Under the pieces are notes generated by a model. It searched no databases, was not told where the DNA came from, and saw only the letters and a program-made list of their open reading frames with translations. A stretch of DNA of 64,000 nt from Lachnospiraceae bacterium (GTDB lineage: Bacteria > Bacillota > Clostridia > Lachnospirales > Lachnospiraceae). The stretch covers positions 1 through 64,000 of the forward strand of contig JAKSRM010000009.1 in NCBI GenBank assembly GCA_024403615.1. The letters run 5' to 3'. Made by a program: the position numbers and the translations under genes. Shown piece by piece: positions 47,545 to 63,644 of this stretch. Every line of letters begins with the position of its first letter. Position 1 is the first letter of the stretch.

Positions 47545-48684
47545 TTATTTTTCAAAGTGTTCTGCTACAACTTTCAGATGGTCCATAATCGGCAGATGCT
47601 GCGGACAGATGCCTTCACATTGACCACAGGAAATACATTCGCTTGCCTTTCCAAAGACAAGGCTTAAACGGTCATAATAGGACTGCTGTGGACGCCATCC
47701 GGTCTGTCCCTTTTCCAATTCGTCTGCATTATACAAAGCAAAATATCTTGGAATCGCAATGTTCATTGGGCAGCCTTCGGTACAATAAGAACAACCCGTA
47801 CACGGAATTCCTACGCTCTCTTGGATGATTTTTGATGCCTTGTTGACGATATCCATTTCTTCATCATTTAAAGGCTCAAAATCCTTCATATAGCCAGTAT
47901 TATCCAGCATCTGTTCCATATTACTCATGCCACTTAAAACGATTTTTACGTTGTCATGAGAAGCTGCAAAACGGATTGCCCAAGACGGAATGGAATCTTC
48001 TGGATGATATTCCTTAAACATTTTCTCTACTTCGTCTGGAACCTTTGCCAAAGTGCCGCCTCTTACTGGTTCCATAACGATTACTGGCTTTCCATGTTTT
48101 TCACAAACTTCGTAGCATTTCCGAGATTGAACGCCTTCGCTTTCCCAATCCAGATAGTTAATCTGTAGCTGAACAAATTCCATTTCCGGATGATCGGTAA
48201 GAACCCGATCAATAAATTCTGCGCTGTCATGAGAAGAAAATCCAATATGACGTACCAGACCCTGTTCTTTCTTTTCCTGTAACCAACGGAAACAATCCAG
48301 TTCTTCGTATTTTGGATATCGTTCCACACCAATATCATGAATTAGGTAATAGTCAAAGTATGTTACGCCCATTCGTTCCAGCTGATCATTAAAAATCTCA
48401 TCCCTGCCTTCTAAGGTATTGAAAAAATCTGCATGTAGCTTTGTCGCCAGCGTATAGCTTTCCCTCGGATACCTTGAAGTTAACGCCTCCTTCACCGCAT
48501 CCTGACTCTTCATACCACAATACATAATGGCCGTATCAAAATAGGTATAGCCCATTTCCAGAAAATGGTCTGTCATCTTTTTCATTTGCTCAATGTCGAT
48601 ACTTCCTTCATCATTTTCATCTAAAAGAGGAAGCCGCATCAGACCAAAACCTAATTTTTTCGCATTATTAAAAATATCTCCCAT
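47545..48684 (-). CDS. Aldo/keto reductase with C-terminal [4Fe-4S] domain
   Basis: A 379-residue oxidoreductase. The N-terminal TIM-barrel (1-290) has the catalytic pattern YTYFDTAIMYCG ... TLATKLHADFF ... YFDYYLIHDI of aldo/keto reductases. The C-terminal 90 residues carry two ferredoxin-like clusters, CTGCSYCTEGCPMNIAI and CISCGQCEGICPQHLPI. Such fused proteins are common in strict anaerobes and are thought to pass electrons to or from ferredoxin; substrate unknown. It is a single gene with no close partner. Confidence 0.92.
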   Translation of the reverse strand: MGDIFNNAKKLGFGLMRLPLLDENDEGSIDIEQMKKMTDHFLEMGYTYFDTAIMYCGMKSQDAVKEALTSRYPRESYTLATKLHADFFNTLEGRDEIFNDQLERMGVTYFDYYLIHDIGVERYPKYEELDCFRWLQEKKEQGLVRHIGFSSHDSAEFIDRVLTDHPEMEFVQLQINYLDWESEGVQSRKCYEVCEKHGKPVIVMEPVRGGTLAKVPDEVEKMFKEYHPEDSIPSWAIRFAASHDNVKIVLSGMSNMEQMLDNTGYMKDFEPLNDEEMDIVNKASKIIQESVGIPCTGCSYCTEGCPMNIAIPRYFALYNADELEKGQTGWRPQQSYYDRLSLVFGKASECISCGQCEGICPQHLPIMDHLKVVAEHFEK

Positions 48685-48745
48685 ACAGAACAGCCTTTCC
48701 TTTTTATATTCTTTTTTGATTATAGCGAACTTTAAGGCAAATAAA

Positions 48746-48769
48746 AAGGGCTGTCTTACGACAACCCTT
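48746..48769 (-). terminator. Terminator of folD
   Basis: Minus strand, 25 bases after the folD stop: AAGGGTTGTC / GACAGCCCTT with a 4-base GTAA loop and TTTTTATTTG behind it. Confidence 0.85.
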
Positions 48770-48793
48770 CTTTATCTTATTTGTAATAATAAA

Positions 48794-49768
48794 TTACAGA
48801 CCGTTCTGTACTCTGCAAGCTTTGATTAAGTTCTTAGCTAACATAGCTGAAGTGATGCTTCCAACGCCAGGAACTGGTGTCTTCCAGCTAGCTTTTTCTT
48901 CAACGTCTTTAGCGCAGCATCCCAGAGTGATAGTTTTCTGTTTGCCAGTCTTTTCGTTGATAACAGGATTTCCGTTCTCATCGAAAGCTTTCTCACGGAT
49001 AACAGATGCATCGATAACGATAGCGCCTTCTTTGATCATGTCAGCTGTAACAGAATCTTTGAAAGGAACTGCACAGATAACAACGTCAGCCTGAGTTGTG
49101 TAATCGTTCTTGATTTCACCGTGTGTTAAGTGATGAACGATAGAAACTGTAGCGAAACGGTTTGTAAGAAGCATTGAAGCTGGTTTACCAATAACGTTGG
49201 AGTTGTTGATGATACATACATCAAGTCCGCAAGCAACGTCTGCAGCCTGCTCTGGTTTAGCCAGTGCAAGAGGAGCGTATTTAGGTCCAACTACAGCTTT
49301 GATTTCGTCTGCATAGTAGTTGATAACTTCGATAATAGCTGCTGCTGTACATGGATAAAGACCTGTTGGATCGCCAACAACTAATTTGCCCATGTTTGCT
49401 GCTGTACAAGCATCAACGTCTTTCAGAGGGTTAAGGATTTCACCGATAGCTGCGTTCTCATCAATGTTATCCAGAGGACGGAAAGCAAGAATTCCGTGGA
49501 TAGTAGGATCATCGTTAAGTTTCTTCATGTTAGCGATATAATCTTCCTGAGAAATATCTGCTGGTAATGCGAAAACTTCTACTTCGATACCTGCTTCGTT
49601 CATTGTCTTTGTTGCGCCTTTTTCATAAGAAAGGTCTGGTCCTTTTTCGCCAACACGAACGATACCAAGCTTTGGTGTGATGCCCTTAGCTTTAAGTTCA
49701 TCAGCTGCAGCTTTACATTCATCTGAGATAGCCTGAGCTACTACTTTACAATCTAAAACTTGTGCCAT
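48794..49768 (-). CDS. folD: FolD-family methylene-THF dehydrogenase, cyclohydrolase site lost
   Basis: A 324-residue FolD-family protein acting on 5,10-methylene-THF. The C-terminal Rossmann domain (INNSNVIGKPASMLL, and TPVPGVGSITSAML) is intact, as is the Asp of KDVD (119). In the family's bifunctional members a Lys (YxxxK) and a Gln (VQLPL) are needed for the cyclohydrolase step. Here Tyr 48 is kept, but the aligned Lys position is Ala 52, and the Gln position is Phe 96 (GILAFRPLD). Yeast Mtd1, a dehydrogenase-only, NAD-linked member, lost the same residues. ATG at 49768 is chosen: the upstream ATG overlaps the GGAG site. Probably a monofunctional dehydrogenase, with FchA doing the hydrolysis. 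Confidence 0.88.
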   Translation of the reverse strand: MAQVLDCKVVAQAISDECKAAADELKAKGITPKLGIVRVGEKGPDLSYEKGATKTMNEAGIEVEVFALPADISQEDYIANMKKLNDDPTIHGILAFRPLDNIDENAAIGEILNPLKDVDACTAANMGKLVVGDPTGLYPCTAAAIIEVINYYADEIKAVVGPKYAPLALAKPEQAADVACGLDVCIINNSNVIGKPASMLLTNRFATVSIVHHLTHGEIKNDYTTQADVVICAVPFKDSVTADMIKEGAIVIDASVIREKAFDENGNPVINEKTGKQKTITLGCCAKDVEEKASWKTPVPGVGSITSAMLAKNLIKACRVQNGL

Positions 49769-52922: not shown

Positions 52923-53912
52923 TTATTTGAAATATTCTTTTGAGTAGTTATCAATTTCTTCAGATACAACCTGGTAAACACCTGGATATACAGAATCTGG
53001 ACCACCCTGAGAAGTACATGGAATGTAGTATTTTGAACCAAATTCATCACAAGATCTTCTAACTTCACGAATAATTTCTTCTCTGCTCCATCCGTCATGG
53101 TCAACAGAAGCACTGTCAATTCCTCCCATGAAGGAAATCTTTCCGCCGTATTTGTCGATAAGATCCTTGATGTTGTTTGTTCTCATAACGCCCTGCCATA
53201 CATCAATACCCATATCGATCATATCTGGTACTAAAGTAGCTGCATAGGAGTCGGAATGATGAACAATAAGTTCTACGCCATGCTGTTTATAATAACCGTA
53301 AACTTTCTCATAGCAAGGTTTGATAAATTCACGGAACATATCTGGAGAAATGAATGTAGACTGCTGGCTGCCCCAGTCATCATGATGGAAAACAGCATCT
53401 GGATGAAGGTGAGAACAAATCTCTTCTGCCATTGCATACTCGTAATCCGTAATCATTTCATAGACTTCTTTCAGCTCGTCTGGGTTGGTGTAGAAATACA
53501 TTAAAGTATTCTGGATTTCGCAAAGATAATGGCTCTGCTCAAAGATTCCAGGAGCTTCCATAACTGCTACGAATTTTTCGTTTTTGTCTACTTTGTTTGC
53601 CATTTCAATGAAAGGTCCCCATGCATCATCATCAAATTTTACGCTAGGAACTTTTACATAATCACGCCAATTTTCAATGTCTTTAATAACGATTTTTTCC
53701 GGTGTATGTACTGGGAATGGTCCCGGAACATTCTCTGGGAAAGATCTTGTTACGCCCCAAGCATCCATAACAGGTTCTCCACCTTTTTTCGGACGAGGCT
53801 GGTTTGCAGAAATAGGAGTTCCTACTAACTGTAAATATTCATACTGATTTACGAAACGATCTGGATTTCCTCCATGAATTGTCTCTAAAAAGTTTTGTTT
53901 TGTTGTAAGCAT
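52923..53912 (-). CDS. Uroporphyrinogen-decarboxylase (URO-D) superfamily protein, methyltransferase-like
   Basis: A 329-residue TIM-barrel protein of the URO-D/MtaA superfamily. It lacks the HemE signature for porphyrin decarboxylation near its N-terminus. In MtaA-type methyltransferases zinc is held by His-x-Cys and a distant Cys; here the corresponding strand reads VHHSDS (residues 217-222), with Asp 221 where Cys is expected, while Cys 299 remains (YYIPCTSQGG). It may therefore have a different metal site. Members of this subgroup in anaerobes sit near corrinoid-protein methyl-transfer systems, but no corrinoid protein or MtaB gene is adjacent, so the substrate is open. A palindrome overlaps its leader. 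Confidence 0.75.
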   Translation of the reverse strand: MLTTKQNFLETIHGGNPDRFVNQYEYLQLVGTPISANQPRPKKGGEPVMDAWGVTRSFPENVPGPFPVHTPEKIVIKDIENWRDYVKVPSVKFDDDAWGPFIEMANKVDKNEKFVAVMEAPGIFEQSHYLCEIQNTLMYFYTNPDELKEVYEMITDYEYAMAEEICSHLHPDAVFHHDDWGSQQSTFISPDMFREFIKPCYEKVYGYYKQHGVELIVHHSDSYAATLVPDMIDMGIDVWQGVMRTNNIKDLIDKYGGKISFMGGIDSASVDHDGWSREEIIREVRRSCDEFGSKYYIPCTSQGGPDSVYPGVYQVVSEEIDNYSKEYFK

Positions 53913-54724: not shown

Positions 54725-55153
54725 TTATTTTGCTTTGTGATTCTTGTACTTCAGTCTAGCCATAGCGCGTGAAAGCTCATTTTGAGCCAACTTATATTCA
54801 AGAGCGCTCTGTTTCTGGAGCAGTTCCTCTTTCGCTCTCTCTGCGGCCCTACGGGCTCTATTTTCGTCAATTTCTTCCGGTAATTCTACGGAATCAACTA
54901 AAACCAGAACGGAACCATTTTCTACTTTCAATAAGCCGGACGTAACAACTGCCTGAATCTCCGTTTGTCCGTTAAAAGCCTCTGAAGAAGGAATTCTCAT
55001 AGAGATTTCTCCCGGAACGATGGCGCAGATCATGTCTGCACGACCTGCCAAAATGCCAATAAGTCCATCAGCTAAAGGAACCTGAATGCTTTCGCAAGGT
55101 CCCTCGTAGAAATCTCTATCTGCAGCTAATAGTCTTAAATCAAAAGTTTTCAT
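54725..55153 (-). CDS. atpC: ATP synthase epsilon subunit
   Basis: A 142-residue central-stalk subunit that couples rotation and inhibits ATPase activity. The N-terminal beta-sandwich (FDLRLLAADRDFYEGPCESIQVPLADGLIGILAGRADMICAI) and the C-terminal helical hairpin (ENRARRAAERAKEELLQKQ) are both present. It is the last subunit gene of the operon, three bases after atpD. Confidence 0.96.
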   Translation of the reverse strand: MKTFDLRLLAADRDFYEGPCESIQVPLADGLIGILAGRADMICAIVPGEISMRIPSSEAFNGQTEIQAVVTSGLLKVENGSVLVLVDSVELPEEIDENRARRAAERAKEELLQKQSALEYKLAQNELSRAMARLKYKNHKAK

Positions 55154-55156
55154 TTA

Positions 55157-56566
<1,410 letters not shown>

Positions 56567-57478
56567 CTAATTGCGGTTTTTGGCTTTCGCCAGTTTCAGG
56601 CTTTTCGCGCCTGCGGATACTTCAATAATTTCTTGAGTGATGGCTCCCTGACGGACATGGTTATATTCCAGACTCAGTCGGTCCAGAATATCCTGTGCAT
56701 TCTGGGTTGCTCGATCCATAGCCATCATTCTTGCGTTTTGCTCACTGCAATAACTATCAACTAATGCTGAATAAATATATCCAGTAATATAATTTGGAAT
56801 TAAATTTTCTAAAACTTCTTTTTTGGAAGGGAAATACTCAAAATCATCGCCTTTATCTACAACATCTGTCTCAAAATGAGAACGATGCAGTGGAAGTAAA
56901 CGGGATAATTGAGCCGTTGGATTTAAGCCATTTCCAAAGTCCGTATAAACCAAATACACCTTCTTGAAATAGCGGCTTAAATACGTTTCCACTAATAAGT
57001 TGGAAATTTCCCTTGCCCGATCCATATTCGGATTCTGAGCAGTATATAAGAAACTCTTTGAAATCGGATAGCCGTGGCTTTCAAAGTAATTCCGTCCATA
57101 TTCTCCAACCACAAAAAGCTCACAATCCTGATGCCGTTCTAATAATTTCAGAGTTTCTTTAATTACACTCTGGTTATAGGAACCAGCCAGTCCTTTATCT
57201 GCTGTAATTACAAGAATTGCATATTTTCCCGGTTTTGAAAAATTCTCACGAGAATCATCCAATCCCTCCGGTAAGAAGAAGTCGCTGTCAATATGGTCAA
57301 TTGAGCGGAAAATACGCTCTATTTCGCCTTTTAAGGTCTCAAAATAAGGACTGGTATTCGTCATATCAGTTCTTGCTTTTCTCAGCTTTGTAGACGCAAT
57401 CAGATACATAGCGTTGGTAATTTTCTGTGTATCTGTTACAGACCCTATTCTGTTTTTTATTTCCTTAGCATTAGACAT
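56567..57478 (-). CDS. atpG: ATP synthase gamma subunit
   Basis: The rotating central shaft, 303 residues. Long N-terminal (KEIKNRIGSVTDTQKITNAMYLIASTKLRKA) and C-terminal (ENARMMAMDRATQNAQDILDRLSLEYNHVRQGAITQEIIEVSAGA) coiled-coil helices flank a Rossmann-like middle with VITADKGLAGSYN. It is slightly longer than the typical 285-290. Its start overlaps the atpA stop by 8 bases. Confidence 0.97.
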   Translation of the reverse strand: MSNAKEIKNRIGSVTDTQKITNAMYLIASTKLRKARTDMTNTSPYFETLKGEIERIFRSIDHIDSDFFLPEGLDDSRENFSKPGKYAILVITADKGLAGSYNQSVIKETLKLLERHQDCELFVVGEYGRNYFESHGYPISKSFLYTAQNPNMDRAREISNLLVETYLSRYFKKVYLVYTDFGNGLNPTAQLSRLLPLHRSHFETDVVDKGDDFEYFPSKKEVLENLIPNYITGYIYSALVDSYCSEQNARMMAMDRATQNAQDILDRLSLEYNHVRQGAITQEIIEVSAGAKSLKLAKAKNRN

Positions 57479-59201
57479 AGAACTTTTCTGCGAAATCCTT
57501 TGCGTATTTTACGATTGTATCTTTTTCTTCTTCTGTGAATATACCATTGCTATCAATAGAATCACAGATGGATGCATGCTCTCTTTCAAATCCAGCTAAC
57601 AGTTCCTGATTAAAACGATAAACGTCATCCATCTCAATATTCTGCATGGAATGAGCCAGAGAAGAAAGAAGAATGATTACCTGCTGATGAAGGCTGTATG
57701 GCTTGTACTGTGGCTGAACCAACATTTTCATCAGACCCTGACCGTAAGTCAGCTGATTCTTCGTCGCATCATCCAAGTCACTGGAGAACTGGGTAAATAC
57801 TTCCATCTCACGGAACTGAGCCAAATCCAGACGAAGAGTACCTACTGCCTTCTTCATAGCTTTAGTCTGAGCATCTCCACCAACACGGGAAACAGAAAGG
57901 CCGACGTTTACTGCAGGTCTTTGTCCGGAGAAGAATAAATTACTCTCCAGATAAATCTGTCCATCGGTGATGGAAATAATGTTTGTAGGAATATAAGCAG
58001 AAACATCGTTATCCTGAGTTTCTACAATAGGCAGAGCGGTAATGCTGCCGCCACCTTTTTCATCACTTAATCTTGCAGATCTTTCCAGCAGTCTTGAATG
58101 GAGATAGAAGACATCGCCTGGATAAGCCTCACGGCCTGGAGACCGGTCTAACAGAAGACTTATGGAACGGTAAGCAACTGCATGCTTGGATAAATCATCA
58201 TAAATAATCAGAACATCCTTGCCCTTTTCCATAAAATATTCTGCCATGGCACATCCGGAATATGGAGCAATATACTGAAGCGGATCTGCATCCGAAGCAT
58301 TTGCTGCAACAATAATGGTATATTCCATTGCACCATGCTTTCTAAGGTTTTCTGCTAACTGCGCTACGCTGCTGGCCTTCTGTCCAATGGCAACGTAAAT
58401 ACATATACAATCTTTTCCCTGCTGGTTAATGATTGCATCAATAGCGATCGCTGTTTTTCCGGTCTGACGGTCGCCGATAATAAGCTCTCTTTGGCCTCTT
58501 CCAATTGGGAACATGGAATCAATAGAAAGAATTCCTGTTTCCAGTGGATGATTTACCGACTGACGATCAACGATACCAGGGGCTTTATTTTCAATCGGAC
58601 GGTAAGCTTCTGCTTTAATTTCGCCTTTTCCATCGATTGGAGTTCCTAAAGAATCTACAACTCTTCCCAGATATCCTTCACCGATTGGAACACTAGCGGT
58701 TCCGTTGGTTCTTCTTACAGAACTACCAGCTAATATTTCCTCGTCATCACCAAAAATAACGCAGCCAACGGTAGTCTCTGCTAAGTCAAGGACCATTCCT
58801 CTCAAGCCGCAATCAAAGACCAGAATTTCTCCGTATTCGGCATTTTCCAAACCAGAAATACGAGCAATACCATCTCCTACGGTAACTACGGTACCTCTTT
58901 CTGCTGGAAGGGCTTTTACCTCCCAATCCTGTAAGGCACCCTTAATAAGAGGAATTAATTCCTTGCCTGAAAATTTCTCTTTACTGAAGGAACGGACAAA
59001 CTGGTCATAAAGACCTTCTTTGCTCCAGTCGTATTCTTCGGATCCAACAATTAATTTGAACCCATTCTCTAAAGACTGGTCGCTGATCCACTCCAGTTCC
59101 GTTTCTTCGCCATATTTCTTTTTGAGAAAGCTAATAAATCTCTGTTTCTGCTCAGCAGAAGGAGCCTGTGCAGAATACAAAAAAGCTTTGTTATCTGTCA
59201 T
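57471..59201 (-). CDS. atpA: ATP synthase alpha subunit with N-terminal delta-subunit C-terminal-domain fusion
   Basis: A 576-residue alpha subunit; the usual length is about 500. From residue about 76 it is an ordinary alpha: SGKELIPLIKGALQDWEVK (N-terminal helix), GTVVTVGDGIARISGLENA, Walker A GDRQTGKT (243-250), and the C-terminal helical domain. The first about 72 residues, LYSAQAPSAEQKQRFISFLKKKY ... DQSLENGFKLIVGSEEYDWS, align without gaps to the C-terminal domain of the delta subunit: SA...S..Q....K, then D.S..G, a G and D.S..G, as I recall them from E. coli delta. The ATG abuts the atpF stop, so no separate atpH gene fits. Fusion or a shared ancestry is inference from this pattern, though the length and position fit well. 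Confidence 0.93.
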   Translation of the reverse strand: MTDNKAFLYSAQAPSAEQKQRFISFLKKKYGEETELEWISDQSLENGFKLIVGSEEYDWSKEGLYDQFVRSFSKEKFSGKELIPLIKGALQDWEVKALPAERGTVVTVGDGIARISGLENAEYGEILVFDCGLRGMVLDLAETTVGCVIFGDDEEILAGSSVRRTNGTASVPIGEGYLGRVVDSLGTPIDGKGEIKAEAYRPIENKAPGIVDRQSVNHPLETGILSIDSMFPIGRGQRELIIGDRQTGKTAIAIDAIINQQGKDCICIYVAIGQKASSVAQLAENLRKHGAMEYTIIVAANASDADPLQYIAPYSGCAMAEYFMEKGKDVLIIYDDLSKHAVAYRSISLLLDRSPGREAYPGDVFYLHSRLLERSARLSDEKGGGSITALPIVETQDNDVSAYIPTNIISITDGQIYLESNLFFSGQRPAVNVGLSVSRVGGDAQTKAMKKAVGTLRLDLAQFREMEVFTQFSSDLDDATKNQLTYGQGLMKMLVQPQYKPYSLHQQVIILLSSLAHSMQNIEMDDVYRFNQELLAGFEREHASICDSIDSNGIFTEEEKDTIVKYAKDFAEKFYV

Positions 59202-59684
59202 TTACTTTTCCTCTGCAGAATCTAAGAAACTATCAAAAGCATCCGATGTGCTGTCAAAAATAGCCTTCTTGGCAGCTTCTTTTGCTAACTCTTCAATCTG
59301 ATCGCCTGCTTCTGCAACGATTCTGTCTTTCTCTTCTTCCGCCTGTTTACGGGCTTTTTCCAGAATAAGTTCTGCTTCTGCTTTGGCTTCATCTGTTCTA
59401 GTTTTCGCCATAGCATTGGCCTCATCCATAGCTTTATTCTTAATATCAGCAGCTTCTGAGTCTGCTTCCTGAAGTTTTGACTCGTATTCTTCCTTTAAAG
59501 CATTTGCTTTATCCAGATTTTCCTTGGTCTGATCATCCAGTTCCTGATATCCGGCTTTTCTTTTGTCAATAAAGTTTTTGACCGGTTTGTAAAGGGCCAG
59601 ATAAAGAACAAAGAACAGAATAGCAAAGTTCAATAAATGAAGCAAAATCTGCTGAAAATCTATGTTCAGTGGTACTCCTGTCAT
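59202..59684 (-). CDS. atpF: ATP synthase b subunit
   Basis: The peripheral-stalk subunit, 160 residues: one N-terminal membrane helix (about 13-32, LLHLLNFAILFFVLYLALYKP) and a long charged coiled coil (about 35-150) with 11-residue-like repeats of Ala/Glu/Lys. There is no delta-like extension at the C-terminus, so this is not a b-delta fusion. It directly abuts atpA. Confidence 0.95.
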   Translation of the reverse strand: MTGVPLNIDFQQILLHLLNFAILFFVLYLALYKPVKNFIDKRKAGYQELDDQTKENLDKANALKEEYESKLQEADSEAADIKNKAMDEANAMAKTRTDEAKAEAELILEKARKQAEEEKDRIVAEAGDQIEELAKEAAKKAIFDSTSDAFDSFLDSAEEK

Positions 59685-59711
59685 TTTTTTTAACCGCCTT
59701 TACAATTAGAA

Positions 59712-60086
59712 TTACAATACGAAAATAATCAGAATAGCAACGATCAATGCGTAAATAATAGCAGTCTCGATAAATACCAGACCTAACATTAAAGAGGTAC
59801 GGATCTTTCCTTCTGCTTCTGGCTGTCTCGCAATACCATCAATAGATTTTGTAATAGCCCATGCCATACCGATTGCACCAACTGCTGCAACAACACCAAT
59901 AACAGCTGCGGCTGCAATAGCTTTTACGTTCTTAAGATTATCAACTACTGGAGCGATAGCTTCGCCTGCTGCTACTGCTGCAACTTCATCAGCTTTTGTT
60001 GTGATAGCAAGAACTACCATGCAAAGAGCCAGAGCTGCTGCGATAATACCTAAAATTGTTATTGTTCTTTTACCAACCTTTGTCAT
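59712..60086 (-). CDS. atpE: ATP synthase c subunit with extra N-terminal membrane segment
   Basis: The rotor-ring proteolipid. At 124 residues it is much longer than the usual 70-90. Residues about 55-124 are a normal c hairpin: helix 1 (AIAAAAVIGVVAAVGAIGMAWAI), the polar loop ARQPEA, and helix 2 with the ion-binding Glu 107 in VFIETAIIYALIVAIL. In front lies an extra hydrophobic segment (about 8-29) and a linker, which may be a signal peptide or a third helix. Ion-site residues are mixed: Glu 107-Thr 108 and Tyr 112 fit a sodium-type site, but the Gln of helix 1 is replaced by Met 74. Confidence 0.95.
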   Translation of the reverse strand: MTKVGKRTITILGIIAAALALCMVVLAITTKADEVAAVAAGEAIAPVVDNLKNVKAIAAAAVIGVVAAVGAIGMAWAITKSIDGIARQPEAEGKIRTSLMLGLVFIETAIIYALIVAILIIFVL

Positions 60087-60134
60087 TTTTATTTCCTCCT
60101 AAGTGAAAACACTTTAATTACTAAATATTTATAT

Positions 60135-60995
60135 TTAAGCTCTTTCGGCTTTTATTTTCTTTTTCTTCTCTTTTGGAACTTTCACTTTTTTCTCTGATTT
60201 TTCTGTTACCTCACCGAAATAGGTAGAAGCCAATGTGGTCAAAACGTAGGCCTGAATCAAAGCATGAAGCAGGGTGAAGATAACACCTACGAAAACAGGA
60301 ATTACGTAACTTGTTAAAGTATAGTGGTAAACCAGATCCGTTACTAAGGCACCAGAAAGTAATGCACCAAAAAGACGGAAGCTCATAGAAATCGGAAGGG
60401 AGAATTCCTTTAACGCTTTTCCAAGACCCTTCAGGCCATTCCGTGCAATACCTCCACCCATAATAACCAGGAACGTAAGGCAACCCATCGTAATAGCTCC
60501 ATTAATGTCTGCCAAAGGAGCAGGCAAAGCAATACTGGTTCCCGCGGTAGTGGAAGCCTGTAAACCTAATAACTCAAACAAGGTTCCAATACAGATGTAA
60601 GCACCGGCAACAAAAATATATCCTCCAATAAAACCATGACAATGAGGAGAATTCTCTTTCGCCATATTGGCAAATAATTCCACGCCCTGCTCTAACAACA
60701 TCTGGAACTTACCTGGAATAATCGTGAATTTTGGAATAACAAAAATACGGATAATAATAGCAGCAACAATCAAAATTCCTGAAACAATAAATGCGGAAAT
60801 TACTGCTGGGTTAACCTGTAATCCAAAAAGATTAATCTTAAACGTTTCATGCAGAACTGCATCCTTCATCGCAACGCTAATTTCTTCATGAGGAGATTCC
60901 GGAAGTAAATTTCCGGTAATAATAATACCTGCAATTAGAATTGCAAAAATGAAGGCGAAGATAATAATAAATCTAGTTTTCTTCTTCTTTTCCAT
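60135..60995 (-). CDS. atpB: ATP synthase a subunit
   Basis: The stator part of the ion channel, 286 residues with about six helices. The essential Arg lies in SMSFRLFGALLSGALVTDLVYHY; a conserved HALIQAYVLTTLASTYFG follows in the last helix. The N-terminus has an additional Lys-rich leader and helix (about 8-27), and the C-terminus ends in a long Lys-rich tail. It is the first gene of the operon; no atpI precedes it. Confidence 0.95.
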   Translation of the reverse strand: MEKKKKTRFIIIFAFIFAILIAGIIITGNLLPESPHEEISVAMKDAVLHETFKINLFGLQVNPAVISAFIVSGILIVAAIIIRIFVIPKFTIIPGKFQMLLEQGVELFANMAKENSPHCHGFIGGYIFVAGAYICIGTLFELLGLQASTTAGTSIALPAPLADINGAITMGCLTFLVIMGGGIARNGLKGLGKALKEFSLPISMSFRLFGALLSGALVTDLVYHYTLTSYVIPVFVGVIFTLLHALIQAYVLTTLASTYFGEVTEKSEKKVKVPKEKKKKIKAERA

Positions 60996-61035
60996 TTTTT
61001 ATTTCCTTAGTTAATAAAAAATTATTGGGACAACC

Positions 61036-61105
61036 AAAAATATCTTGCAAGGGATCCTGCAAGATATTTTTACTCGTATATTTCCCTTACAACCTATGAA
61101 TTATA
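61036..61105 (-). promoter_or_regulatory. atp operon leader: -10 box and long hairpin
   Basis: Minus strand: a -10 box TATAAT (61105-61100) without a clear -35, then a 14-bp perfect stem AAAAATATCTTGCA / TGCAAGATATTTTT (61036-61071) followed by TTTTTGG. It lies 40 bases before atpB. It can act as the terminator of fchA or as an attenuator of the atp transcript. The gap 60996-61185 holds no gene. Confidence 0.6.
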
Positions 61106-61185
61106 CTCTTTTTACCAAAAAAGTACACTTTAATTATTCACGAAAATAATAGTAGGTCGATGGGGCCTTTTTGGTTGTTTTTTTA

Positions 61186-61824
61186 TTATTTTGCAGGCTG
61201 TAATTTCTGGTAAACTGTACCAAAAATTTCATCTGCTTTATTACCGGATTCATGAAGCATATTTAAAGCTTTCTGATTCAGGTTTTCAGCATATTCTCTG
61301 TCAGCCATGCCCTTTGTATTAATGAAAATATTTAAGCTAGCTGCAAACATTGCGCTCTTGCAGATTGTAGCACCACATCCAGCATCACTAACTGCCAGTG
61401 CGGATCCTTTTGCTGCAAATTCAGCAATGATGTCGATGGCCTGAGCACAGCATTCCATAATTTCCATAGGAACCTGGCAAGCGTCCTTTGAGCACTGCTC
61501 AAGAACTTCTGCTTTATGAGCTTTTTCTTCCTCTGTTGTAGCTGGAAGGCCATAAGCTTTTGATAATGGCTCGAATCCTGCAGCATCTTCATCAATAAGA
61601 CTTAAGAACTTCTTCTGAAGATCATCAGATTTTTCTTTCAGGGCAATGATTTCTTCTTCAACATCTGCATATTTCTTTTTGCCAACGGTTAAAGAACCTA
61701 CCATGTTTCCAAGAGCAGTTCCGATAGCACCGCAAAGAGCAGCCGCACCGCCACCACCAGGAACAGCTTCTTTTGAAGCTAATACTTCGATAAAATCAGG
61801 GAGAGTTTTCTCGCTAATGTTCAT
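61186..61824 (-). CDS. fchA: Methenyltetrahydrofolate cyclohydrolase (FchA, cyclodeaminase family)
   Basis: A 212-residue protein of the formiminotransferase-cyclodeaminase family. The glycine-rich folate-binding start SKEAVPGGGGAAALCGAIGTALGNMV and the later SDAGCGATICKSAMFAASLNIFINTK are typical. The family either deaminates formimino-THF or hydrolyses methenyl-THF; the neighbour fhs, and the FolD that lacks cyclohydrolase residues, favour the latter. It follows fhs by about 140 bases containing a terminator and a second hairpin, so it may be expressed partly on its own. The next gene is atpB. Confidence 0.9.
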   Translation of the reverse strand: MNISEKTLPDFIEVLASKEAVPGGGGAAALCGAIGTALGNMVGSLTVGKKKYADVEEEIIALKEKSDDLQKKFLSLIDEDAAGFEPLSKAYGLPATTEEEKAHKAEVLEQCSKDACQVPMEIMECCAQAIDIIAEFAAKGSALAVSDAGCGATICKSAMFAASLNIFINTKGMADREYAENLNQKALNMLHESGNKADEIFGTVYQKLQPAK

Positions 61825-61849
61825 TGTAATCCTCCAAATATTTCGTCAA

Positions 61850-61882
61850 ACCGAGTAGGAAGAATAAATCTGCCTACTCGGT
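61850..61882 (-). repeat. Hairpin in the fchA leader
   Basis: ACCGAGTAGG / CCTACTCGGT, a 10-bp perfect stem with a 13-base loop, between the fhs terminator and the fchA ribosome binding site. It may control fchA translation or stabilise its mRNA. Confidence 0.5.
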
Positions 61883-61904
61883 ACACGTTTTTATTCAAAA
61901 ACAA

Positions 61905-61944
61905 TCAGCGAGGACTTGCCGATTGCATAACAAATCCTCGCTGA
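61905..61944 (-). terminator. Terminator of fhs
   Basis: Minus strand: TCAGCGAGGA / TCCTCGCTGA, a 10-bp perfect stem with a 20-base loop, followed by TTGTTTTTG. Confidence 0.85.
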
Positions 61945-61961
61945 CAAAATCAAAAGATAGA

Positions 61962-63644
61962 TTAGAATAATCCGGAAATCTTTCCAGTGTTATCAACGTC
62001 GATCTTTTCAGCTGATGGAACTTTTGGAAGTCCAGGCATCTTCATGATTTCGCCTGTAAGAGCTACTACGAAGCCTGCACCTGCGGAAACGTTAACCTGA
62101 CGGATTGTGATTCTGAATCCTGTAGGACGTCCAAGTTTTGTCTGATCATCAGTAAGTGAGTACTGAGTCTTAGCCATACATACTGGCATTTCGCCATAAC
62201 CGAATTTCTCGAGTTCTTCGATTTCTTTAGCTGCCTTAGGAGCAAAGTCAACACCATCAGCACCGTAAACTTTAGTTGCGATAGCTGTGATCTTTTCTTT
62301 GATGGAAGCTTTCTCATCGTATGCAAACTGGAAGTTGTTAGGTTCTTCGCAAAGACGAATAACTTCTTCAGCTACTTCGATACCGCCTTCGCCGCCTTTT
62401 GCCCAAACTTCACTCATCTTAACGTTAACACCGAGTTCAGCACATTTCTTTGTAACTAATTCGATTTCAGCGTCAGTATCGTTAACGAATCTGTTAAGAG
62501 CAACAACTGCTGGAAGACCAAATACCTTAGTAACGTTTTCAACGTGTTTAAGAAGGTTTGGAAGACCTTTTTCAAGAGCTTCAAGGTTTTCTTTACCAAC
62601 GTCTGCCTTTGGAACGCCACCGTTGTATTTAAGAGCTTTGATTGTAGCAACGATGATAACTGCATCTGGCTGAAGTCCAGCAAGACGGCATTTGATATCG
62701 ATGAATTTCTCTGCGCCGAGGTCAGCACCGAAACCAGCTTCTGTTACTACATAATCACCAAAGTGCATAGCCATCTTTGTAGCCATAACTGAGTTACATC
62801 CATGAGCGATGTTAGCGAATGGTCCACCATGAACGAATGCTGGTGTTCCTTCAAGAGTCTGAACCAGGTTTGGTTTCAGAGCATCTTTTAATAATGCTGT
62901 CATAGCGCCCTGAGCATTGATCTGGCCTGCTGTTACAGGTTCGCCTGCTCTGTTATATCCGATAACGATTCTTGCGAAACGTGCTTTAAGATCATCAAGA
63001 CCTGAAGCTAAGCAGAATGCTGCCATAACTTCTGATGCAACAGTGATATCGAATCCATCTTCTCTTGTGTAGCCGTTAGCTTTTCCGCCTAAACCATCTA
63101 CTACGTTACGAAGCTGTCTGTCGTTCATATCTACACAACGTCTCCAAGTGATTCTTCTTGGGTCGATGTCAAGAGCGTTGCCCTGGTAAATATGGTTGTC
63201 GATCATAGCTGCTAATAAGTTGTTAGCTGCGCCGATTGCGTGGAAGTCACCTGTGAAATGAAGGTTAATATCTTCCATAGGAACAACCTGTGCATAGCCG
63301 CCGCCTGCTGCTCCACCTTTAACACCGAATACAGGTCCTAAGGATGGCTCACGAAGAGCGATAACTGTCTTTTTGCCAAGTTTAGAAAGAGCATCACCAA
63401 CACCTACTGTTGTAGTTGTTTTGCCTTCTCCTGCTGGAGTTGGGTTGATAGCTGTGCAAAGGATTAATTTAGCTTTCTTTCCGTCTGGACGAGGAGTTGC
63501 TAATAAATTGTAATCAACTTTTGCTTTGTACTTTCCGTAATACTCAATGTCGTCTTCTGTAAGACCAACTTTTGCAGCGATCTCTCTGATGTGCTGAGGT
63601 GTAGCTTCCTGAGCGATCTCAATGTCTGATTTGAATTCTGCCAT
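61962..63644 (-). CDS. fhs: Formate--tetrahydrofolate ligase
   Basis: A 560-residue ATP-dependent enzyme that makes 10-formyl-THF from formate. Signatures are the P-loop-like [45 protein letters not shown] and [20 protein letters not shown]. It opens the methyl branch of one-carbon assimilation used by acetogens and also feeds purine synthesis. Codon use is more uniform than in the neighbours, with preferred codons, suggesting high expression; the same is seen in the divergent folD. It follows folC by 27 bases with AAAGGAG before the ATG. Confidence 0.98.

What the first reader, a model, noticed from the sequence alone, without database searches (positions are those of the whole stretch)
48794..49768. 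FolD lacking the cyclohydrolase Lys and Gln, paired with a separate FchA
In this FolD the Lys of YxxxK is Ala 52 and the Gln of VQLPL is Phe 96, while the Asp of KDVD is kept. Loss of the same pair marks the dehydrogenase-only yeast Mtd1. The window also encodes FchA beside fhs, so hydrolysis of methenyl-THF is likely delegated. The GRS-like cofactor motif is also changed (INNSNVIGKP), hinting at NAD rather than NADP.
Basis: partly seen in the sequence, partly recalled or inferred. Interest (0 to 1): 0.6.

Follow-up and report, generated by a model that had tools for sequence, protein, structure and literature searches.

The report
Dehydrogenase-only FolD paired with FchA
This acetate-making bacterium carries a folate enzyme that has lost the two residues needed for one of its usual two reactions, and a separate enzyme almost certainly does that step instead; the arrangement is already known biochemically from other acetogens, but here it can be read from sequence across many genomes.

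Summary
FolD at 48794-49768 (-) has Ala52 for the YxxxK Lys, Phe96 for the VQLPL Gln, the KDVD Asp kept, and INNSNVIGKP in place of the GRS motif. All close relatives that can be read share the loss, and the protein sits in a large clostridial clade of K/Q-lacking FolDs. In the family survey all 82 genomes with the K/Q-lacking form carry FchA, against 1 of 47 with the intact form; class-wide it is 56 of 58, the exceptions being 76-80% complete drafts. Published E. coli mutants at either site lose nearly all cyclohydrolase but keep some dehydrogenase. The host carries acetyl-CoA synthase, so it is probably a Wood-Ljungdahl acetogen. The sister clade includes a genome matching Acetobacterium woodii, whose enzyme is NAD-specific, which supports the NAD reading. 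Monofunctional dehydrogenases of acetogens are long known, so this is a new member of a known kind, with an extra insert. No activity was measured.

The parts
48794..49768 (-). folD, 324 aa: predicted dehydrogenase-only 5,10-methylene-THF dehydrogenase
   Evidence: PF00763 93.9 bits and PF02882 110.5 bits; only PF02882 match above cut-off in the host genome; AlphaFold2 pLDDT 88.3
49613..49615 (-). Ala52 codon (E. coli Lys54 of YxxxK)
   Evidence: alignment with E. coli FolD
49481..49483 (-). Phe96 codon (E. coli Gln98 of VQLPL)
   Evidence: alignment with E. coli FolD
49412..49414 (-). retained Asp119 (E. coli Asp121 of KDVD)
49181..49210 (-). INNSNVIGKP cofactor loop (GRSxxVGxP in the common form)
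   Evidence: N, N, S and N invariant in the 36-sequence alignment A1
49124..49135 (-). HHLT at the end of the second Rossmann strand (H[ST][RK]T in GRS-type relatives)
   Evidence: H, H and L invariant in A1; contrasts
49238..49306 (-). insert of about 20 residues before the Rossmann domain, absent from E. coli, A. woodii-type and GRS-type FolD (approximate limits)
   Evidence: alignment; shorter in L034 and L035
48923..48994 (-). longer C-terminal segment EKAFDENGNPVINEKTGKQK... (approximate limits)
   Evidence: alignments
48743..48772 (-). intrinsic terminator just after folD
   Evidence: 13-pair stem plus T run; 2 terminator-like sites found against 0.7 expected
61186..61824 (-). fchA, 212 aa: separate methenyl-THF cyclohydrolase
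   Evidence: PF04961 219 bits over 2-180 of 182; single copy in the genome
61962..63644 (-). fhs, formate-THF ligase, directly upstream of fchA
   Evidence: ORF; homologues next to fchA-folD in relatives

Best explanation
The gene encodes a methylene-THF dehydrogenase without useful cyclohydrolase activity. [quoted passage not shown] Shown here: residue states, FchA co-occurrence, single origin of the loss, acetyl-CoA synthase in the host, kinship with the A. woodii-type enzyme. Inferred: absence of cyclohydrolase, NAD preference, direction of flux.
For: Residues. FchA: family, lost form 82/82 versus intact 1/47; class, lost 56/58 versus intact 0/9; own subclade 34/35. fhs-fchA-folD adjacent in most relatives with enough flanking DNA. 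E. coli K54N: no detectable cyclohydrolase, about 19% dehydrogenase; Q98H: about 1% and 8% (PMC5688156). Host genome has two acsB copies, with neighbours read by eye as CODH/ACS genes. Tree: all lost forms one clade (SH-aLRT 100 with the two sites removed; 100/100); window clade plus the INNSN A. woodii-type clade 97/92 even with cofactor columns removed. A. woodii NAD-specific (PMC7793690), E. callanderi NADH (PMC8760232), Blautia luti NADPH (PMC12773636).
Against: No activity has been measured for this subclade. E. coli K54N and Q98H also lose most dehydrogenase activity, so compensating changes must be assumed. The host genome is only 87% complete, so a second FolD could be missing. The window clade and the A. 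woodii-type clade both sit on long branches. The G-to-N change in the loop also occurs with Arg kept (INRS) in other clades, so the loop alone does not prove NAD use.
Confidence: 0.87

Rival explanations
1. A bifunctional FolD that performs the cyclohydrolase step with other residues, FchA being an additional copy of the activity.
For: Some FchA-positive genomes keep an intact or partly intact FolD (3 of 30 intact, 11 of 30 with Lys to Gln and Gln98 kept), so FchA and a possibly bifunctional FolD can coexist.
Against: All readable members of this subclade lack both residues; E. coli mutants at either site lose about 99% or more of cyclohydrolase (PMC5688156); the loss goes with FchA almost without exception.
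Confidence: 0.07
2. Dehydrogenase-only, but NADP-dependent like the Blautia and Peptostreptococcus productus enzymes.
For: Those enzymes are reported NADP(H)-dependent and belong to gut acetogens; the window protein has no acidic residue at the end of the second Rossmann strand.
Against: The Arg of GRS and the S/T-R/K of H[ST][RK]T are replaced and fixed as N and H-L; the nearest outside clade is the INNSN type of A. woodii and relatives, reported NAD-dependent.
Confidence: 0.2
3. A decaying or repurposed FolD with no folate dehydrogenase role.
For: Long branch; no NCBIfam FolD model reaches its cut-off.
Against: Conserved Tyr and Asp, 83% mean column identity in 36 relatives, only FolD in the genome, confident FolD fold, next to fhs-fchA in relatives.
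Confidence: 0.03

Closest known systems
NAD-dependent methylene-THF dehydrogenase of Acetobacterium woodii (Ragsdale and Ljungdahl 1984)
   Same: Lys and Gln lost, INNSN loop, FchA partner in the genome matching A. woodii, acetogen
   Different: The A. woodii type has Ile at the Lys site and HVFT instead of HHLT, lacks the 20-residue insert, and lies in one cluster fhs-fchA-folD-rnfC2-metVF; in the window folD is apart from fhs-fchA
Monofunctional NADP-dependent methylene-THF dehydrogenase of Peptostreptococcus productus (Wohlfarth 1991, cited in PMC6443876)
   Same: Reported as monofunctional, from an acetogen
Yeast Mtd1 (PDB 1edz)
   Same: Lys to Thr, Gln to Tyr, INRS loop, NAD-dependent
   Different: Far apart in sequence (phmmer E 8.7e-5, C-terminal half only), KDVE in place of KDVD; structural Z 28.1 against 35.5 for the best bacterial FolD
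Bifunctional FolD of E. coli (1b0a, 5o28)
   Same: Fold, Tyr50, Asp121
   Different: Lys54 and Gln98 intact; no FTCD_C/FchA match in E. coli (control)

Membership tests
FolD/MTHFD fold family | both Pfam domains and the two-domain fold | tested here: met
   PF00763 93.9 bits, PF02882 110.5 bits; VIA-align Z 35.5 to 3l07 over 281 residues, rmsd 2.1
Bifunctional FolD (dehydrogenase plus cyclohydrolase) | Lys of YxxxK and Gln of VQLPL | tested here: not met
   Ala and Phe
Bifunctional FolD (NCBIfam equivalog models) | score above a curated cut-off | tested here: not met
   best 164.8 bits against a cut-off of 411
Monofunctional acetogen methylene-THF dehydrogenase paired with FchA | Lys and Gln absent, Asp kept | tested here: met
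Monofunctional acetogen methylene-THF dehydrogenase paired with FchA | FchA encoded in the genome | tested here: met
   61186-61824, single copy
Monofunctional acetogen methylene-THF dehydrogenase paired with FchA | host has the Wood-Ljungdahl pathway | tested here: met
   two acsB matches above cut-off; neighbouring ORFs read by eye as CODH/ACS genes
Monofunctional acetogen methylene-THF dehydrogenase paired with FchA | no cyclohydrolase activity in the purified enzyme | not testable with these tools
   needs an assay
NAD-specific branch (A. woodii type) | common clade with the A. woodii-type enzyme | tested here: met
   support 97/92 with cofactor columns removed; both stems long
NAD-specific branch (A. 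woodii type) | NAD preferred over NADP | not testable with these tools
   inferred from motif and kinship only
Mtd1 (yeast) | orthology with Mtd1 | tested here: inconclusive
   weak C-terminal match by sequence (E 8.7e-5), Z 28.1 by structure; Mtd1 was not put on the tree

The most novel reading that the evidence does not exclude
In Clostridia the cyclohydrolase step was handed to FchA in stages: Lys54 can go first (Gln54 with Gln98 kept in one family), Gln98 after it, and one sub-branch (A. woodii type plus these gut and rumen acetogens) then switched from NADP to NAD. Activity and cofactor of FolD, and so part of an acetogen's energy budget, could then be predicted from two short motifs in uncultured genomes.
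Probability: 0.4. Interest if true: 0.5.

Novelty: new member of a known kind. Interest (0 to 1): 0.36.

Why it matters
It links decades-old enzyme purifications (monofunctional dehydrogenases of acetogens) to a sequence rule: loss of Lys54 and Gln98 predicts a separate FchA. The cofactor loop may tell NADH from NADPH use, which matters for the ATP balance of uncultured gut acetogens. [quoted passage not shown] diverged FolDs that fail standard models, as this one fails NCBIfam's, would produce that. That last link is my inference.

Tried and rejected
A degenerate DNA pattern meant to classify all 200 family genomes failed to hit even the window, most likely a spacing error of mine; sequences were read instead. 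The paper on the P. productus enzyme is not held, so its properties are taken from PMC6443876. I first thought the Lys/Gln states were never mixed; the class sample showed a third state, Gln54 with Gln98 kept, in 11 of 30 FchA-positive genomes. Direct kinship with Mtd1 was considered; nothing found favours it over convergence, but it was not tested on the tree. Text searches found no paper stating the residue-FchA rule, but the library is incomplete.

Full report
OBSERVATION. Against E. coli K-12 FolD fetched from NC_000913, Lys54 is Ala52, Gln98 is Phe96 and Asp121 is kept; the cofactor loop is INNSNVIGKP. FchA (61186-61824) and fhs (61962-63644) are adjacent to each other, but folD lies 11.4 kb away beyond the ATP synthase operon and ends in an intrinsic terminator. 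The host genome (1.67 Mb, 87% complete) has one PF02882 match above cut-off and one PF04961 match.

CLOSE RELATIVES. One scan of named genomes gave 35 relatives of 65-90% identity, from Lachnospiraceae and other Clostridia, many of them ruminant or gut metagenome assemblies, and including Bilifractor porci. At the Lys site 31 have Ala and 3 Ile (one locus is cut before it); at the Gln site all 35 have Phe; the residues NNSN and HHL of the cofactor region are invariant. FchA is found in 34 of these 35 genomes. In relatives with enough flanking DNA, fhs, fchA and folD are usually neighbours, so the window's split arrangement is the exception.

FAMILY SURVEY. In 200 genomes of the same family, one per genus, the best matches were fetched and read. 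In this sample FolD was either intact (Lys and Gln) or lacked both. Genomes with the lacking form: 81 of 81 have FchA; genomes with only the intact form: 0 of 46 (Fisher p about 1e-35, which ignores shared ancestry). Two further FchA-positive genomes read later add one to each side, G075 (lacking) and G165 (intact), so 82/82 and 1/47. In G016 (87% complete) FchA was found but no FolD. About 70 FchA-negative genomes had their FolD unread, so the sample is not random.

CLASS SURVEY. In 391 genomes of the class, the 67 FolDs read comprised 58 lacking forms, 56 with FchA, and 9 intact forms, none with FchA; the two exceptions are drafts of 76% and 80% completeness. The reverse direction was then tested on 30 FchA-positive genomes whose FolD had not been read: 16 lack both residues, 11 have Gln at the Lys site with Gln98 kept (all in one family, f43), and 3 have an intact FolD, one of these with a second, unread copy close to fchA. 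So loss of both implies FchA, but FchA does not imply loss of both.

TREE. With the two diagnostic columns removed, all lacking forms make one clade inside the intact forms (SH-aLRT 100, 100/100 with the cofactor columns also removed). The window clade and five sequences of another family (f56) with INNSN are sisters (97/92 with cofactor columns removed); both stems are long, so long-branch attraction is not excluded. One of the five comes from a single-contig genome of 4,044,777 bp with fhs-fchA-folD followed by ORFs that fit rnfC2, metV and metF, the cluster reported for A. woodii (PMC3315566); the length equals the A. woodii genome as I remember it.

FUNCTION. Published E. coli mutants: K54N has no detectable cyclohydrolase and about 19% dehydrogenase; Q98H has about 1% and 8% (PMC5688156). 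A. woodii's dehydrogenase is NAD-specific (PMC7793690), E. callanderi's NADH-dependent (PMC8760232), Blautia luti's NADPH-dependent (PMC12773636), and the P. productus enzyme is described as monofunctional and NADP-dependent (PMC6443876). The GRS loop with H[ST][RK]T is usual in the lacking forms of the family. That the GRS Arg and the HSKT-type residues contact the 2'-phosphate of NADP is from my own knowledge of the human enzyme. The window protein has lost both, which favours NAD; I put this at about 0.75.

HOST. Acetyl-CoA synthase is present twice, in neighbourhoods whose ORFs read by eye as CODH, AcsC, AcsD, AcsE and accessory genes. The host is therefore very probably an acetogen. [quoted passage not shown] the second closest locus here is from isolate RGIG5612. 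The window's FolD passes none of the NCBIfam FolD cut-offs listed, which may explain such gaps.

STRUCTURE. AlphaFold2 with 36 sequences gives pLDDT 88.3; nearest solved structures are bifunctional FolDs (Z up to 35.5), with Mtd1 at Z 28.1. The role of the 20-residue insert and of the longer C-terminal segment is unknown.

VERDICT. A real gene for a predicted dehydrogenase-only FolD with a delegated cyclohydrolase, most likely NAD-dependent. The kind is known from biochemistry; the sequence-level rule and the membership of these uncultured acetogens are what this adds.

Noticed in passing
window 57471-59201 (-): AtpA is 576 aa with an N-terminal stretch resembling the C-terminal part of the delta/OSCP subunit (PF00213 positions 105-160, 21.3 bits, just under the 22.3 cut-off); no separate atpH ORF lies between atpF and atpA.
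   Followed up: partly
L257-L263, L265, L269, L271, L274: FolDs of one family (f43) have Gln at the Lys54 site with Gln98 kept, in FchA-positive genomes: a possible intermediate state of unknown cyclohydrolase activity.
   Followed up: partly
window 54725-63644 (-): fhs-fchA lies directly upstream of the F1Fo ATP synthase operon, with folD 11.4 kb further on, whereas relatives usually have fhs-fchA-folD together.
   Followed up: partly
window 52923-53912 (-): A uroporphyrinogen decarboxylase family protein (PF01208), possibly a corrinoid-linked methyltransferase in this acetogen.
   Followed up: no
window 47545-48684 (-): Aldo-keto reductase fused to a 4Fe-4S ferredoxin domain, directly downstream of folD.
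   Followed up: no
L266, L267, L272, L275, L276, L278, L280, L282: Other K/Q-lacking FolDs carry INRS, VNRS or INHS loops resembling the INRS of Mtd1, several with HS[KR]T kept; cofactor use there is unclear.
   Followed up: no
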